A stretch of 10,870 bases of DNA from an uncultured Porphyromonadaceae bacterium (GTDB lineage: Bacteria; Bacteroidota; Bacteroidia; Bacteroidales; Muribaculaceae): contig USGZ01000026.1 of the NCBI GenBank assembly GCA_900554265.1, forward strand, positions 1-10,870, in the 5' to 3' direction. Positions within the stretch are counted from its first letter, which is position 1, and the number at the start of each line of letters is the position of its first letter. A program made the position numbers and the translations under genes. Shown here one piece after another: positions 1 through 9,721 of the stretch. The notes beneath the pieces are model-generated. The model did no database searches and was not told where the DNA came from. It was given only the letters and a program-made list of their open reading frames with translations.

Positions 1-16
1 CCGTGCGTCCCTACGG
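1..16 (+). repeat. Partial copy of a palindromic intergenic repeat
   Basis: The first 16 bases (CCGTGCGTCCCTACGG) are identical to 8458-8473, the right arm and tail of a palindromic repeat. The left arm would lie outside the window. A related two-unit copy sits at 6292-6364. All copies seen lie between genes. Confidence 0.7.
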
Positions 17-4205: not shown

Positions 4206-4787
4206 ATGAAAATACGGATACTGACTCTGCTTGTCGCACTGGTGTGGCTGGCAATGCCGCTTGCGGCGCAAAATGTGGCGTTGAAGAGCAACCTGCTCTA
4301 TGATGCCACGGCAACCTTGAACGGCGGCGTCGAGGTCAAGTTCGCTCCTCAGTGGACCGGCGACCTCAGCGGCAACCTCAACGCCTGGGACATCAACAAC
4401 CACCGCTGGAAGCACTGGCTTGTGCAGCCCGAGGCGCGCTACTGGTTCTGCCAGGCCTTCTCCGGCCATTTTGTCGGCGCCCATCTCATAGGCGGTCAGT
4501 ACAACTTCGGCAATCTGGACATGCCTTTCAAGTTCCTCGGAACCGACTACCGCAAACTCAAGGACTATCGCTTCCAGGGCTGGATGGCCGGTGCGGGCAT
4601 TGCTTACGGCTATTCGTGGATTATCAACCGCCGCTGGAACATCGAGGCCGAAATCGGCTTCGGATGGGTCTACACCCGCTACGACAAGTACGAGTGCGCC
4701 GACTGCGGACAGAAAGTCGACTCCAATCATCCCCATAATTACGTTGGTCCGACCAAGGCCGCTATAAACCTCATTTACACCTTCTGA
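4206..4787 (+). CDS. DUF3575 outer-membrane beta-barrel protein
   Basis: The 193-aa product has a clear signal peptide (MKIRILTLLVALVWLAMPLA, probable cleavage after A20 or A21) and then the DUF3575 pattern: K-S-N-L-L-Y-D (27-33), N-G-G-V-E (39-43), W-K-H-W...P-E-A-R-Y-W (68-80), G-x-x-x-G...G-Q-Y-N-F-G and a C-terminal GPTKAAINLIYTF. Ending in an aromatic residue after alternating polar and hydrophobic residues fits an outer-membrane barrel. The two cysteines in E-C-A-D-C-G (164 and 167) belong to the family's usual C-x-x-C loop. DUF3575 genes are often found beside DUF3868 and Mfa1-type fimbrillin genes in Bacteroidales, where they are thought to help assemble or secrete the pilus; the exact role is not established. 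It is the first gene after the predicted promoter and ends 2 bp before the DUF3868 gene. Confidence 0.88.
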   Translation: MKIRILTLLVALVWLAMPLAAQNVALKSNLLYDATATLNGGVEVKFAPQWTGDLSGNLNAWDINNHRWKHWLVQPEARYWFCQAFSGHFVGAHLIGGQYNFGNLDMPFKFLGTDYRKLKDYRFQGWMAGAGIAYGYSWIINRRWNIEAEIGFGWVYTRYDKYECADCGQKVDSNHPHNYVGPTKAAINLIYTF

Positions 4788-4789
4788 CA

Positions 4790-6253
4790 ATGACGACCAA
4801 GCTTATTTTCAAGACAATCTGCGGTCTGGCCCTGACGCTGGGAGCCTTCTCCGCGTCGGCAGCCGAGCAGGCCGCCATGCTCCGGGTCAGCGACATCAAG
4901 GTGAACCGCGTCGGCGACGAACTGGTCGTGGCTTTGGACATCAACCCCCGCAGCGTCAATCCCGGCCGCGACAAGGAAGTGACATTCACCCCGGTAGTGC
5001 GCGCCACCGAAGGCACCGACAGCCTGGTGCTGCCGACCGTGACCATCGCCGGCCGCAACCGCTACTATACCCATGTCCGCAACAACGACATGCCCCAGGG
5101 TCGCGTCTATCCCGCCTGGAGCGACGAGGCCATCGCCTATCGCGCCGAGGTGCCTTTCGAGGCATGGATGAACCGCTGCCATATCGACATGAAGCAGGAC
5201 CTGGCCAATTGCTGCCGGAAGCCTGAAATCGGACCCGAGACGCCGCTGGCACGCCTGGACTTCGTCCGTCCGCCCTTCCGGCCCGACTTCCGCTTCGTCG
5301 AGCTCACCGGCGACAGCGCCATCGAGCTCACCGCCGAAGGCCGCGCCTACGTGGACTTCATCGTCAACCGCACCGAAATCCGCCCGACCTACCGCCGCAA
5401 CCGCATCGAGCTGGCCAAGATCATCGCCTCCATCGACAAGGTCCGCGACGATACCGCCGCCGTGATAACCCGCATAACCATCAAGGGCTACGCCTCGCCC
5501 GAAGGCCCGTACGACAACAACGTGCGCCTGGCCATGGGCCGTACGGCATCGCTGAAGGAGTATGTTCGCCAGTACTATAACTTCGACCCCGAGCTGATGA
5601 GCACCGACTACGAGCCCGAGGACTGGGAAGGCCTCCGCGTCTGGGTAGAGCAGTGTACGCTGCCCCATCGCGCCGAGATTCTGCAGATTATCGACTCCCC
5701 GCTGGCTCCGGACCCCAAGAACAGCGAAATCCAGCGCCGCTACCCTGAGGAGTACCGCCTGATGCTCGACAGCATCTACCCGGCCCTGCGCCACTCGGAC
5801 TACACCATCAAGTACCGCATCAAGGCCTACGCCACCGTAGAGGAGCTTCTGCAGGTCTACGCCAGCGCTCCGGAACGTCTGCGCCCGGTCGACTTCCAGC
5901 GCATCGCCGCCGTCTATCCGACGGGCAGCGACCGCTATAAGGAAATCATGCTCAAGGCCGTCGAAATCCATCCCTACGACACCAAGAGCAACCTCAACGC
6001 CGCCACCATAGCCCTCCAGGCCGGCGACCTCGCCAAGGCTGCCGAATACCTCGACCGCGCCGGCGACTCTCCCGAGGCAGTCTATACCCGCGGAGTCCTC
6101 GCCGGCATGAACGGCGACCTCGAACGTGCCGCCGGACTCTTCGACCAGGCCGCCGGCATGGGCTCCGAACCTGCCGCCGCCGAGGCCGCCAAAGCCCGCG
6201 CCATCATCAACCGCGAGACGGTCGAGTACCTCATCACACCCGAGGGGAAGTAA
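4790..6253 (+). CDS. DUF3868 protein with OmpA-like and TPR regions
   Basis: The 487-aa protein has a signal peptide (about residues 1-24, ending S-A-S-A before A-E-Q) and three parts. Residues about 27-135 are the DUF3868 beta-rich domain (LRVSDIKVNRVGDELVVALD is its first hairpin). Residues about 170-260 resemble an OmpA C-terminal domain: strand E-I-R-P-T-Y-R-R-N, then I-K-G-Y-A-S-P-E-G-P (231-240), then N-x-x-L-A-M-G-R-T-A-S-L-K-E-Y-V (244-259), the usual peptidoglycan-binding helix. Residues about 370-475 hold helical repeats of TPR type (NLNAATIALQAGDLAKAAEY, then A-V-Y-T-R-G-V-L-A-G-M-N-G-D-L-E-R-A). This combination is known next to fimbrillin genes. The protein is probably periplasmic, possibly linking the DUF3575 barrel and peptidoglycan. 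Only 2 bp separate it from the upstream gene, so the two are surely co-expressed. The start at 4790 is preferred because it gives a complete signal peptide. Confidence 0.88.
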   Translation: MTTKLIFKTICGLALTLGAFSASAAEQAAMLRVSDIKVNRVGDELVVALDINPRSVNPGRDKEVTFTPVVRATEGTDSLVLPTVTIAGRNRYYTHVRNNDMPQGRVYPAWSDEAIAYRAEVPFEAWMNRCHIDMKQDLANCCRKPEIGPETPLARLDFVRPPFRPDFRFVELTGDSAIELTAEGRAYVDFIVNRTEIRPTYRRNRIELAKIIASIDKVRDDTAAVITRITIKGYASPEGPYDNNVRLAMGRTASLKEYVRQYYNFDPELMSTDYEPEDWEGLRVWVEQCTLPHRAEILQIIDSPLAPDPKNSEIQRRYPEEYRLMLDSIYPALRHSDYTIKYRIKAYATVEELLQVYASAPERLRPVDFQRIAAVYPTGSDRYKEIMLKAVEIHPYDTKSNLNAATIALQAGDLAKAAEYLDRAGDSPEAVYTRGVLAGMNGDLERAAGLFDQAAGMGSEPAAAEAAKARAIINRETVEYLITPEGK

Positions 6254-6291
6254 AGCTATGGAGTCGGGGCCGTATGGCAAAATCGCAAAAT

Positions 6292-6364
6292 GTAGGGATG
6301 CACGCTCGTGCATCCGCCAAAATACGCTGACGGCCAGCGGATGCTCCGGGGAGCATCCCTACGG
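6292..6364 (+). repeat. Two-unit palindromic repeat (BIME-like)
   Basis: Two hairpin units point in opposite directions. The first is GGATGCACG (6296-6304) with CGTGCATCC (6307-6315), preceded by GTAG. The second is GGATGCTCC (6339-6347) with GGAGCATCC (6350-6358), followed by CTACGG. The ends also form a perfect 10-bp inverted repeat, GTAGGGATGC (6292-6301) with GCATCCCTAC (6353-6362). Single units with the same CTACGG tail occur at 8447-8473 and 1-16. It lies between the DUF3868 and fimbrillin genes. Confidence 0.8.
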
Positions 6365-6529
6365 ACTGCCTAAATAATCAATAATCAAACACAATAACAA
6401 ACCTATCTCTCACTCTCAATCGACATCACTACCTCTCGAACCCGATTACATTAACAAACCTCTTCCGAGCAATCGGACTAAAGCGATAATAAACAATCAT
6501 TAAATAACAATAGCCACATTATTCAAACT
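6365..6529 (+). other. A/C-rich leader before the fimbrillin gene
   Basis: This untranslated stretch is strikingly poor in G and rich in A and C. I see no TAnnTTTG box, so transcription probably enters from upstream. TAACAAACCT occurs twice (6395-6404 and 6452-6461). A small hairpin, TCCGA (6464-6468) and TCGGA (6473-6477), closes a GCAA (GNRA-type) loop. An unstructured A/C-rich leader would favour efficient ribosome loading. Confidence 0.5.
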
Positions 6530-8395
6530 ATGAACAAATTCAGCACAATGTTCGTCGGCCTCGGAGCTATCGCCATGATGGCTTCCTGCTCCAACGACGA
6601 ACCGGCCAACAACGGCGATACGCCCGACACCCCCAACGGTGACGTGGCCTACATGACCGTAGAGATCAAATCTCCGGAGCGGGAAATCCCCTCCCGAGCC
6701 ACAAGCACTCCCGGCTATGAAGAGAGCGACAAGACTCCTATCGAGCATCAGGTGAGCAGCGTACAGTTCCTCTTCTTCGGGTCCAACGGCGAATATGAGT
6801 TCACCGTGAAGGCCGACGACACCACCTTCAAGCCTGCCGACAACGATGCAACCAACGCCGGAGGCGCCAACGTAGAGTACGTAGGTACCAAGAACGTAAT
6901 CATCCTCGAGAACGTAACCGCCAAGGATCACCCCAACTACGTGATCACCGTTCTCAACGCACCCTCCGACTTCGAAGCCGGCGCAACCATGGCCGAAACC
7001 GCCCTGAAGCTGACCGCTTATGCCACCAGCTTCCCCGCTACGAACGGTCCCGCCACTCCCTTCGTGATGACCACCTCGTCCTTCCTTGGTGCGGTAACCG
7101 GTGCCAACGGCGGCGAACGTCACGACGACACCTATTACTATGCCACCAAGCTCAACAGCAACGACTTCATGACAACCCTCGAAGCCGCTCAGACCAACAC
7201 CAAGCCCGTCGAAATCTACGTAGAGCGTCTTGCCGCCAAGGTTCAGATGAGCGCTGAGGGCGCAACCGAAAACATCGACAACCACACCGTCTACAAAATC
7301 CAGCAGACTCTCGCCGGCGGCGACGACCAGACTTCCGGCGGCGACGCCATCTCCGACGTAGACCTCTATGTCGAAATCCTCGGCTGGGGCCTGAACGCCA
7401 CCACCAAGCAGAGCTATATGGGCAAACAGCTCGACACCACCTGGAGCGACAGCAATCCCTTCGCCGGCTGGAACAACTCCGGCGACTGGCGTTCCTTCTG
7501 GGGCATGTCGTACATCTACGGTCCCAAGTTCAATCAGGACGAACTCCTCTATGAGTCGCCCGCAGCTATCGTTGCCAAGGGCCACACCCTCAACGGCACC
7601 ACGACAAGCTACGAATACTGCTACGAGAACACCAACAATACGAGCATCTTCGAGGAAGTTGCCGACGGTCCTCTGACCCTCGATGGCAATAAGGTTGGCG
7701 TCCACAATGCCAAGGTTACCCACGCCGTTCTCCGCACCCGCGTATATCAGAAGAATGCCGAAGGCCAACTGGAGGCTCCCGAACTGGTTAACTTCCGCGG
7801 CGTTACTTACACCGGCAAATCCTACAAAGCCCTGCTTCTGAACAAGCTCAAAGCCGACGACAACCTCAACTACTGGATCAAAGTCAGCGAAACTGGCGAC
7901 AACATCGACTGGCGTACCGTCAAGTCGACCGACTTCAAGCTCATCCGCAACGAAGCCGCCGGCCACGCTCTCGGCGCAGTCAGCGTAGTACTCAACACCA
8001 CCGAGACCATCTACACCCGCGACGCCGCCGGTAACGGCACTCCCAACCTCAACGCCGAGACCGAGCTCAATGCTGCCCTGGCCGCTGCCTACGACTTCGC
8101 CAAGTATCCCGCAACCGGTACCGACAACGGCGACAGCTTCTACTACATTCCCATCGAGCACCTCGCTTCTACCCCTGGCCAGACCAACGCCGTCGAAGGC
8201 TACTACGGCGTAGTCCGCAACCACTGGTACAAGCTGGTAGTCCGCAGCTTCAGCAAGGTAGGTCATCTGGTATTCGACCCCGAGACCGATAACACCCCCA
8301 TCGTTCCGGACAAGCCCGAAGATCCCAAGTACTTCGTAGGCGCAAGCGTCAACATCCTCTCCTGGAAGGTTGTAAACCAGCCTGTTGACCTCTAA
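6530..8395 (+). CDS. Major fimbrillin, FimA/Mfa1-like pilus subunit lipoprotein
   Basis: The 621-aa product is made as a lipoprotein: hydrophobic signal ending M-M-A-S-C20. R56-A57 (in I-P-S-R-A-T) lies where FimA/Mfa1 precursors of Porphyromonas gingivalis are cut by an arginine-specific protease, freeing the acceptor groove for the next subunit. Fimbrillin signatures follow: VEIYVERLAAKVQM (227-240), F-W-G-M-S-Y-I-Y (323-330), YCYENTNN (363-370), and G-Y-Y-G-V-V-R-N-H-W-Y-K (557-568). The C-terminal strand is NILSWKVVNQPVDL, matching the likely donor strand of this family. It is somewhat longer than Mfa1 (about 560 aa). Valine codons favour GTA here (6 of the first 12) but not in the upstream gene (1 of 12), consistent with high expression or a separate history. 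The gene is bracketed by palindromic repeats and followed by a strong terminator. The start has an A-rich upstream (CACATTATTCAAACT) rather than a Shine-Dalgarno sequence. Confidence 0.88.
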   Translation: MNKFSTMFVGLGAIAMMASCSNDEPANNGDTPDTPNGDVAYMTVEIKSPEREIPSRATSTPGYEESDKTPIEHQVSSVQFLFFGSNGEYEFTVKADDTTFKPADNDATNAGGANVEYVGTKNVIILENVTAKDHPNYVITVLNAPSDFEAGATMAETALKLTAYATSFPATNGPATPFVMTTSSFLGAVTGANGGERHDDTYYYATKLNSNDFMTTLEAAQTNTKPVEIYVERLAAKVQMSAEGATENIDNHTVYKIQQTLAGGDDQTSGGDAISDVDLYVEILGWGLNATTKQSYMGKQLDTTWSDSNPFAGWNNSGDWRSFWGMSYIYGPKFNQDELLYESPAAIVAKGHTLNGTTTSYEYCYENTNNTSIFEEVADGPLTLDGNKVGVHNAKVTHAVLRTRVYQKNAEGQLEAPELVNFRGVTYTGKSYKALLLNKLKADDNLNYWIKVSETGDNIDWRTVKSTDFKLIRNEAAGHALGAVSVVLNTTETIYTRDAAGNGTPNLNAETELNAALAAAYDFAKYPATGTDNGDSFYYIPIEHLASTPGQTNAVEGYYGVVRNHWYKLVVRSFSKVGHLVFDPETDNTPIVPDKPEDPKYFVGASVNILSWKVVNQPVDL

Positions 8396-8446
8396 ACAGC
8401 ACTCCACGTGGATGTCGCGGAACCGCGCAATGCGTTGACAACCAAC

Positions 8447-8473
8447 GGACGCACGGACCGTGCGTCCCTACGG
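8447..8473 (+). repeat. Single-unit palindromic repeat downstream of fimbrillin
   Basis: GGACGCACGG (8447-8456) and CCGTGCGTCC (8458-8467) form a perfect 10-bp palindrome around one central base, followed by the CTACGG tail (8468-8473). The last 16 bases equal positions 1-16, and the unit is a variant of the second unit at 6339-6364. Differences between copies keep the arms paired. Confidence 0.8.
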
Positions 8474-8545
8474 ACGGCGCAACAAAACCGCAACAAGGCG
8501 GCCGACCGCAAACTACATTTCGCAACACCCACCTGAAATTACCAT

Positions 8546-8601
8546 AAGTCTTCAGGGCCGGAAGGGCCTTGAGTCAGGACGGCCCTGAAGACTTCCTTTT
8601 T
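8546..8601 (+). terminator. Strong hairpin terminator after the fimbrillin gene
   Basis: AAGTCTTCAGGGCCG (8546-8560) pairs perfectly with CGGCCCTGAAGACTT (8580-8594) over 15 bp, with a 19-base loop, and is followed by CCTTTTTCTCTCT. This is the form of a rho-independent terminator. It sits between the shaft subunit gene and the anchor gene, and no promoter is visible between it and 8660, so it may act as a partial terminator. Confidence 0.85.
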
Positions 8602-8622
8602 CTCTCTATCTCCTCGAAAACA

Positions 8623-8638
8623 GGCCGCAAGGCCGCAA
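8623..8638 (+). repeat. 8-bp tandem duplication
   Basis: GGCCGCAA occurs twice in direct succession (8623-8630 and 8631-8638), 22 bp before the anchor gene start. Its role, if any, is unknown; it could be chance or part of the leader. Confidence 0.5.
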
Positions 8639-8659
8639 AATTAACTCAACTCGACTTAG

Positions 8660-9721
8660 ATGAAAAACGTCTGTGACATATTCAGGGCATTCTTACTGAC
8701 GCTGCCGGTGTTGGCGTCCGTAGTGCTTACCTCTTGCGACAGCATGATCTACGACGATGAAGGCGACTGTGACCCTTATTACAAGGTGCGCTTTGTCTAC
8801 GACCGCAACCTCAAGTACACCGATGCCTTCGCCGCTGAAGTCAACGAGGTGACCCTCTATATCGTCGACACCGACGGCAATATCGTGTGGCAGAAACACG
8901 AGGCCGGCGACGAACTCAAATCCGGCAGCTATCTTATGGATGTCGAAGGCATCGCTCCCGGCACCTACTCGCTTATCGCGTGGTGCGGCAGCGGCCATAC
9001 CACCGACTTTTCCATTCCCGAAAGCGCCACTAAGCATACACATCTTCAGGCAACCCTCGGGGGCCGCAGCGCGCACGACGAAGGCTGGAACTTCGCAGGT
9101 TCCGCCGTGCGATCGAACTTCCGCGACCTTTACCACGGCAAGCTTATGGATGTGACATTCCCCGATACCCAGGGCACTCACGTATATGAGATTCCCCTGA
9201 CCAAAGATACCAACGACGTCCACGTCGTGCTCCAGCACCTGTCCGGCGATCCCGTCGACGAAACCCAGTTTCTCTTCACCATCGAGGAAGAGAGCGGGCT
9301 GATGGACTGGGACAATACCGTGCTTCCCGACGAGCCCCTGCGCTTCTACGCCCACACCGTCCGCAGCGGTTCCGCAGGCGTCGAAGTTCCGGACATCGAC
9401 GACGGCGAGGACGGCCGCGCACGTGCCGTCACCAATGTTAGTTGCGCCGTGGCCGACTTCCAGGTAAGCCGCATCACGCCCACGCAGCGCAACTTCGTCC
9501 GCATATACCGGAACGACGACCATAGCCTCGTGGCCTCAATTCCGATTGCCGACTATGCCGTCATGGTAAAGGGCGAGCACGCGAAGCTCAGCGACGCCGA
9601 CTACCTCGACTACTGCGACAACTACTCGATGGTACTTTTCCTCGACGACAACGGCCGCTGGTTCGATTCCACGATTTACATCAATTCATGGAAGGTAGTC
9701 ATTAACCATATCGAACAGTAA
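8660..9721 (+). CDS. FimB/Mfa2-family pilus anchor lipoprotein
   Basis: The 353-aa protein has a lipoprotein signal peptide with lipobox L-T-S-C26 and then the FimB/Mfa2-family pattern: D-S-M-I-Y-D-D-E-G-D-C (27-37), Y-K-V-R-F-V-Y-D-R-N-L-K (41-52) and V-N-E-V-T-L-Y-I-V-D (61-70), the opening beta-strands of the first domain. A P-G-T-Y-S-L-I-A-W (100-108) segment is also typical. The second half (about 180-350) is another beta domain ending in Y-I-N-S-W-K-V-V-I. FimB and Mfa2 in P. gingivalis are outer-membrane lipoproteins that anchor the fimbria and limit its length. Unlike the fimbrillin, it shows no clear arginine cleavage site just after the lipid-bearing cysteine, as expected for a subunit that stays attached. 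It is separated from the fimbrillin gene by the terminator, so lower expression is expected. Confidence 0.87.
   Translation: MKNVCDIFRAFLLTLPVLASVVLTSCDSMIYDDEGDCDPYYKVRFVYDRNLKYTDAFAAEVNEVTLYIVDTDGNIVWQKHEAGDELKSGSYLMDVEGIAPGTYSLIAWCGSGHTTDFSIPESATKHTHLQATLGGRSAHDEGWNFAGSAVRSNFRDLYHGKLMDVTFPDTQGTHVYEIPLTKDTNDVHVVLQHLSGDPVDETQFLFTIEEESGLMDWDNTVLPDEPLRFYAHTVRSGSAGVEVPDIDDGEDGRARAVTNVSCAVADFQVSRITPTQRNFVRIYRNDDHSLVASIPIADYAVMVKGEHAKLSDADYLDYCDNYSMVLFLDDNGRWFDSTIYINSWKVVINHIEQ

What the first reader, a model, noticed from the sequence alone, without database searches (positions are those of the whole stretch)
6292..8473. Palindromic repeat family with compensatory changes brackets the fimbrillin gene
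Four hairpin units share the pattern GGA-Y-GC...GC-R-TCC followed by CTAC(GG). Stem bases differ between units (ATGCACG, ATGCTCC, ACGCACGG) but the opposite arm changes to match each time, so pairing is kept. That argues for selection on the DNA or RNA hairpin. The unit at 6292-6315 is the reverse complement of the others in layout, making a head-to-head pair as in enterobacterial BIMEs. One copy lies just before and one just after the fimbrillin gene and another at the left window edge. Such elements can stabilise or delimit mRNA, or be mobilised by a RAYT transposase.
Basis: partly seen in the sequence, partly recalled or inferred. Interest (0 to 1): 0.72.

Follow-up and report, generated by a model that had tools for sequence, protein, structure and literature searches.

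The report
REP hairpins in a fimbrial operon
Short hairpin-forming repeats beside a gut bacterium's fimbrial genes are copies of a known kind of dispersed bacterial repeat that is probably spread by its own small transposase, so the finding is real but ordinary in kind.

Summary
The repeats are real, but only three units are complete; the fourth is half a unit cut by the window edge. Each complete unit is GTAG plus a perfect 9-10 bp stem, the layout of a REP (repetitive extragenic palindrome). No genome is held for the window, so copies were counted in relatives. Of 297 genomes of the same family, 113 hold the pattern: 2528 copies, up to 164 per genome, against 6 for the reversed pattern. Inner stem letters vary and both arms change together. 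A REP-associated tyrosine transposase (RAYT) exists in relatives: 28 of 30 fetched loci carry GTAG hairpins, against 1 of 30 IS200-type loci. Window unit 2 occurs twice, letter for letter, inside one RAYT open frame. REP and RAYT co-occur (59 of 113 genomes against 24 of 184), yet the REP-richest genome shows no RAYT. Bracketing of fimbrillin looks incidental: none of 25 gaps read in 14 relatives holds such a hairpin, though only three of those genomes are known to carry the family. The RAYT resembles published subclass 2.4. Verdict: new member of a known kind.

The parts
6292..6315 (+). REP unit 1: GTAG foot, 9 bp stem, 2 nt between arms
6316..6338 (.). 23-base spacer between units 1 and 2 of the inverted pair (6292-6362)
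   Evidence: sequence
6339..6362 (-). REP unit 2, inverted to unit 1; the same 24 letters occur in 4 of 45 related genomes searched
8447..8471 (-). REP unit 3: GTAG foot, 10 bp stem, 1 nt between arms, 51 bp behind fimbrillin
1..14 (-). half a REP unit cut by the window edge (GTAG foot and one 10-base arm, the same arm as unit 3)
4790..6253 (+). DUF3868 gene upstream of the REP pair (context, not part of the REP)
6530..8395 (+). fimbrillin gene (Fimbrillin_C, PF15495) (context)
8546..8601 (+). terminator-like hairpin (15 bp outer stem) followed by five T, behind fimbrillin and behind unit 3 (context)
   Evidence: not listed by the simple scan, whose loop limit is 8

Best explanation
The units are copies of a GTAG-type REP family found in the window's bacterial family (Muribaculaceae by record titles). 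Shown: GTAG foot plus perfect hairpin; pairing kept through changes on both arms; many copies in related genomes; inverted pairs; and association, in relatives, with a HUH/tyrosine transposase of the RAYT (TnpA-REP) kind that has such repeats beside or inside its gene. Inferred: the RAYT recognises the GTAG foot and hairpin in single-stranded DNA, cuts and rejoins there, and so spreads single units and inverted pairs, which survive mostly in tolerant sites between or behind genes; the window copies are such insertions. An added effect on mRNA is possible but not shown.
For: 113 of 297 family genomes hold the pattern, 2528 copies against 6 in the reversed control. Over 47 distinct units, the five stem positions not fixed by the pattern pair in 46, 45, 44, 40 and 38 of 47, against shuffle maxima of 31, 38, 29, 34 and 27. 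RAYT loci with a GTAG hairpin: 28 of 30 fetched, 20 of 22 without the eight genomes that supplied seeds; IS200-type loci 1 of 30; eleven other tetranucleotides as foot 0-3 of 30. RAYT proteins: best NCBIfam model is REP_Tyr_transpos, nearest solved structure TnpA-REP 4er8. Co-occurrence 59 of 113 against 24 of 184 genomes, Fisher p 7e-13. Unit 2 twice inside a RAYT open frame in G166. A stem variant lying around the RAYT of G020 is concentrated in that genome: 20 of 27 copies over 45 genomes, 8 of the 20 at the RAYT locus itself (L133).
Against: 54 of 113 REP-bearing genomes show no RAYT at the limit used, among them the two richest, G156 (164 copies) and G012 (148); assembly gaps or loss could explain it, but neither was tested. 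The limit (E below 1e-22) was set after seeing the list, and genomes are not independent. The RAYT proteins score 47-62 bits on the NCBIfam model, under its cut-off of 80. In several RAYT loci (for example L134, L147, L151, L153) the hairpin has a stem other than the counted pattern. No RAYT or copy number is known for the window's own genome. Movement itself was not observed.
Confidence: 0.85

Rival explanations
1. The hairpins are kept here for a local job: they stabilise or punctuate the mRNA around fimbrillin, so that it is made in a different amount from its neighbours. This could hold on top of a REP origin.
For: The pair lies 38 bp and unit 3 lies 51 bp behind a stop codon. As RNA, 6280-6370 folds better than 200 of 200 shuffles. 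In the closest relative (L001) the same two gaps hold copies of a different palindrome. Di Nocera 2013 states that REPs lie mostly downstream of coding regions and many may be transcribed (abstract passage).
Against: No GTAG or GTGG hairpin in 25 of 25 gaps of 14 relatives with the same gene order, though only three of these genomes are known to hold the family. A terminator-like hairpin follows fimbrillin. The unit 3 region does not fold unusually well as RNA (27 of 200 shuffles as good). The family is dispersed genome-wide in relatives.
Confidence: 0.12
2. They are the ends or remnants of an ordinary IS200/IS605 element rather than REPs.
For: IS200-type elements also use subterminal hairpins (abstract start of PMC6006769), and IS200-type genes are common in these genomes.
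Against: GTAG hairpins lie at 1 of 30 fetched IS200-type loci against 28 of 30 RAYT loci. The window holds no transposase gene among the ten proteins scanned.
Confidence: 0.02
3. The palindromes are chance matches in GC-rich DNA.
For: The window is GC-rich (0.58) and holds many weak repeats.
Against: 0 of 200 shuffles reach two matches; unit 2 is found exactly in four other genomes; 2528 pattern copies against 6 in the reversed control.
Confidence: 0.01

Closest known systems
GTAG REP super-family (Di Nocera 2013, PMC3733652; Nunvar 2010, PMC2817692; passages read)
   Same: GTAG foot next to a stem mostly 6-9 bp long, short loop, inverted pairs, sub-families with alternative complementary stem letters, many copies per genome, association with a tyrosine transposase.
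   Different: Own stem (GGAYGC...GCRTCC). The passage read in PMC3733652 lists GTAG repeats in Proteobacteria, Cyanobacteria, Chloroflexi and the PVC group, not in Bacteroidetes.
TnpA-REP subclass 2.4 / RAYT group 4 (Quentin 2018, PMC6006769; passages read)
   Same: NH[IV]H, WQ and YIxxN motifs; REPs flanking the gene and, in frame, inside it between HxH and Tyr; some double-foot REPs; reported in Bacteroidetes.
   Different: The proline of the published YIxNNP motif is absent in the eight of nine aligned rows that reach it. No tree with published members was made.
REPIN / BIME (inverted REP pairs; Bertels and Rainey 2011, PMC3116915, seen in listing only; otherwise recalled)
   Same: Two inverted REPs with a short spacer that can fold as one long hairpin (6292-6362).
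   Different: No transposition or population analysis was done; the spacer was not compared across copies.
E. coli REP and its TnpA-REP (solved structure 4er8)
   Same: Nearest solved structure by profile (E 2.3e-6); same GTAG foot.
   Different: Stems here are short and perfect; protein similarity is distant (30.5 bits).

Membership tests
GTAG REP | GTAG (or GTGG) tetranucleotide directly at the foot of a palindrome | tested here: met
   3 of 3 complete units in the window
GTAG REP | Pairing kept through complementary changes | tested here: met
   Five varying stem positions exceed all 500 shuffles over 47 distinct units; related units are not independent
GTAG REP | High copy number in the host genome | not testable with these tools
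   No genome held for the window; in relatives 113 of 297 genomes have 1-164 copies
GTAG REP | Mostly extragenic | tested here: inconclusive
   All three window units lie between genes; in 20 chosen stretches of relatives 27 of 45 units are intergenic, 14 fall inside called ORFs (some are RAYT genes, ORF calls are crude) and 4 at stretch ends
GTAG REP | RAYT gene in the same genome, associated with the same repeat | not testable with these tools
   Own genome absent; in relatives 59 of 113 REP-bearing genomes have one
RAYT (TnpA-REP), proteins of relatives | HUH motif and catalytic tyrosine | tested here: met
   Invariant in 9 of 9 aligned proteins
RAYT (TnpA-REP), proteins of relatives | Score above NCBIfam REP_Tyr_transpos cut-off | tested here: not met
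   47.5-62.2 bits against 80 in five proteins; best family for all five
[quoted passage not shown]
   28 of 30 loci have GTAG hairpins within the fetched stretch, and L140, L147 and L154 show an inverted pair on each side; flanking on both sides was not scored for all
TnpA-REP subclass 2.4 | Motifs NH[IFV]H, WQ, YIxNNP | tested here: inconclusive
   First two met in 9 of 9; Tyr invariant, but no proline at the last position in the 8 rows that reach it
TnpA-REP subclass 2.4 | REP inside the transposase gene without breaking the frame, between HxH and Tyr | tested here: met
   L097, L101, L107, L112 and L130
TnpA-REP subclass 2.4 | Cuts single-stranded GTAG-hairpin DNA (known for E. coli TnpA-REP) | not testable with these tools
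   Needs a biochemical assay

The most novel reading that the evidence does not exclude
Two unrelated palindromic repeat families have settled in the same two gaps of this fimbrial operon, one in the window and another in its closest relative, because a hairpin there is useful: it uncouples the fimbrillin mRNA from its neighbours. If so, mobile REPs are repeatedly recruited as mRNA punctuation in Bacteroidales fimbrial operons.
Probability: 0.1. Interest if true: 0.5.

Novelty: new member of a known kind. Interest (0 to 1): 0.3.

Why it matters
It shows a large and fast-diversifying REP/RAYT system in Muribaculaceae (common gut bacteria, recalled), with many stem variants across about 300 genomes, so that co-evolution of a transposase and its hairpin can be studied there. 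It may also explain broken assemblies: the window itself starts in the middle of a unit. It does not by itself change ideas about fimbrillin control.

Tried and rejected
Rejected: chance; IS200-type ends; a local role of the bracketing as the main explanation.

Led nowhere or inconclusive: Rfam gave 0 matches at gathering scores in the window; the 341-base gap region gave 0 megablast matches in the plasmid collection. The terminator scan of 6200-8760 found 4 sites against 3.3 expected, so it was not used. Strand test at one stem position: the T-G mispair on the GTAG strand occurs 58 times and the C-A mispair 35 times in 63 genomes chosen for having copies, and 8 against 1 in the 47 distinct units. 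This leans to folding of the GTAG strand but is clustered by genome, so I draw no conclusion. Exact unit 2 is in 4 of 45 genomes, all four with a RAYT hit, but 39 of those 45 have one, so this says nothing. In the order 36 of 393 genomes match the pattern; that draw overlaps the family draw. The gap of window and L001 aligns poorly, so no clean empty site was obtained.

Literature: four searches; the one joining 'Muribaculaceae' with 'repetitive extragenic palindromic' found 0 papers. Passages only were read of PMC3733652, PMC12306157, PMC6006769 and PMC2817692; other papers were seen in listings only. The library holds open-licence papers alone.

Full report
What is there. The window holds three complete hairpin units, each GTAG followed directly by a perfect stem of 9-10 bp with 1-2 nt between the arms: 6292-6315(+), 6339-6362(-) and 8447-8471(-). 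A fourth at 1-14(-) is cut by the window edge and shows only the foot and one arm, the same arm as unit 3. The stem letters of the complete units differ and both arms change together. Units 1 and 2 form an inverted pair of 71 bases with the feet outermost. The pattern is found twice in the window; none of 200 shuffles reaches that.

Where it lies. The window carries a fimbrial operon: DUF3575, DUF3868, a Fimbrillin_C protein and two Mfa2 matches. The pair lies 38 bp behind the DUF3868 gene and unit 3 lies 51 bp behind fimbrillin. A terminator-like hairpin with a T run follows at 8546-8601. The nearest relative of the DUF3868 protein has 74% amino acid identity, and the best DNA identity over that region is 75%. 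Record titles among the close relatives read Muribaculaceae or Porphyromonadaceae; I call the family Muribaculaceae on that basis. No genome is held for the window, so all genome-wide statements concern relatives.

Copies in relatives. GTAGGGAYGC, 6-10 bases, GCRTCC occurs in 113 of 297 genomes drawn from the family, 2528 copies in all, up to 164 in one genome; the reversed pattern gives 6. Of 393 genomes drawn from the order, 36 match. Over 47 distinct units in the DNA then held, the five stem positions that the pattern leaves free pair in 46, 45, 44, 40 and 38 of 47; 500 shuffles of partners reach at most 31, 38, 29, 34 and 27. The other four positions are fixed by the pattern and say nothing. 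Twenty stretches of relatives, picked because REPs or a RAYT lay there, hold 45 units: 21 between genes in tandem, 6 between convergent genes, 0 between divergent genes, 14 inside called ORFs and 4 at stretch ends. Divergent gaps make up 11,931 of 47,826 intergenic bases; ORF calls are crude. Of 20 neighbour pairs under 400 bp, 10 have the feet outward, 1 inward and 9 the same direction; eight of the ten outward pairs have starts 80-126 bp apart.

The transposase. Y1 transposase (PF01797) is matched in 187 of 297 genomes. The 30 loci fetched for the strongest hits carry a GTAG hairpin in 1 case. In 22 of these 30 a motif script found HxH and YIxNQ as in IS200 transposases; in the other 8 it found nothing. 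A weaker-scoring class of roughly 150-260 aa stands beside or around GTAG hairpins. Nine of these aligned have invariant HxH, WQ and Tyr. A profile of them gives hits below E 1e-22, a limit set after seeing the list, in 83 of 297 genomes. Of the 30 loci that the search returned, one per genome and best first, 28 carry GTAG hairpins, and 20 of 22 if the eight genomes that supplied the seeds are left out. Eleven other tetranucleotides in place of GTAG give 0-3 of 30. The best NCBIfam family of five proteins tested is the REP-associated tyrosine transposase, at 47-62 bits under its cut-off of 80. The nearest solved structure is TnpA-REP 4er8.

Co-occurrence. RAYT hits are in 59 of 113 REP-bearing genomes and 24 of 184 others (Fisher p 7e-13; genomes are related, so the p value is optimistic). 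Against this, 54 REP-bearing genomes show none, including the two richest, G156 and G012. In several RAYT loci the hairpin has another stem than the counted pattern. In G020 such a variant stem accounts for 20 of the 27 copies found over 45 genomes, eight of them at its RAYT locus.

Link to the window. Unit 2 is found letter for letter in G068, G128, G166 and G233, 13 places over 45 genomes. In G166 its two copies lie inside the open frame of the RAYT gene, one near the start and one between HxH and Tyr. Units 1 and 3 were found only in the window among the loci then held; they were not searched by themselves in whole genomes.

The fimbrillin bracket. I examined 14 relatives (13 of the 44 loci, and L117). 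Fimbrillin follows DUF3868 in all 14; Mfa2 follows in 11, and the other three loci end before it. No GTAG or GTGG hairpin lies in any of the 25 gaps read. Eight of these genomes have no copy of the pattern and three were not counted, so only G004 (16 copies), G006 (1) and G233 (4) are informative. In L001 the same two gaps hold five and three copies of another palindrome, which has 53 exact matches in that genome. I read this as tolerant sites; a useful hairpin there is the bolder reading, kept at 0.1.

Known or new. GTAG REPs and RAYTs are well known. Subclass 2.4 of TnpA-REP is reported from Bacteroidetes, with REPs inside the transposase gene in frame and double-foot REPs (passages of PMC6006769). 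The motif match here is good except for the last proline. A passage of PMC3733652 lists GTAG repeats in other phyla only. I file this as a new member of a known kind. The terms REPIN and BIME are partly recalled.

Noticed in passing
L001 2265-2528 and 4446-4949; genome G001: The closest relative has a different palindromic repeat (TAGGAGCGCGAC...GTCGTGCC) in the same two operon gaps, five and three copies; 53 exact matches in that genome and none in nine other genomes searched.
   Followed up: partly
L060 (G001:C16 around 4468-4812): An IS200-type transposase gene with a YIKNQ motif (84.7 bits on the NCBIfam IS200 model) has six copies of that same palindrome within its 3.3 kb stretch; it may be linked to that family.
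   Followed up: partly
L101 1303-1869, L112 1324-2106, L097, L107, L130 1489-2085(-): REP units lie in frame inside RAYT genes, in the stretch between HxH and Tyr; described before for subclass 2.4.
   Followed up: partly
L085, L087, L088, L092, L095, L105 and others: A second weak-scoring Y1 protein class of about 300-400 aa with MPDH[IV]H and a longer C-terminal part; these loci show hardly any GTAG hairpins.
   Followed up: no
window 1-14: The window starts in the middle of a REP unit, as expected if an assembly broke in a dispersed repeat; whether the window end is a contig end is not known.
   Followed up: no
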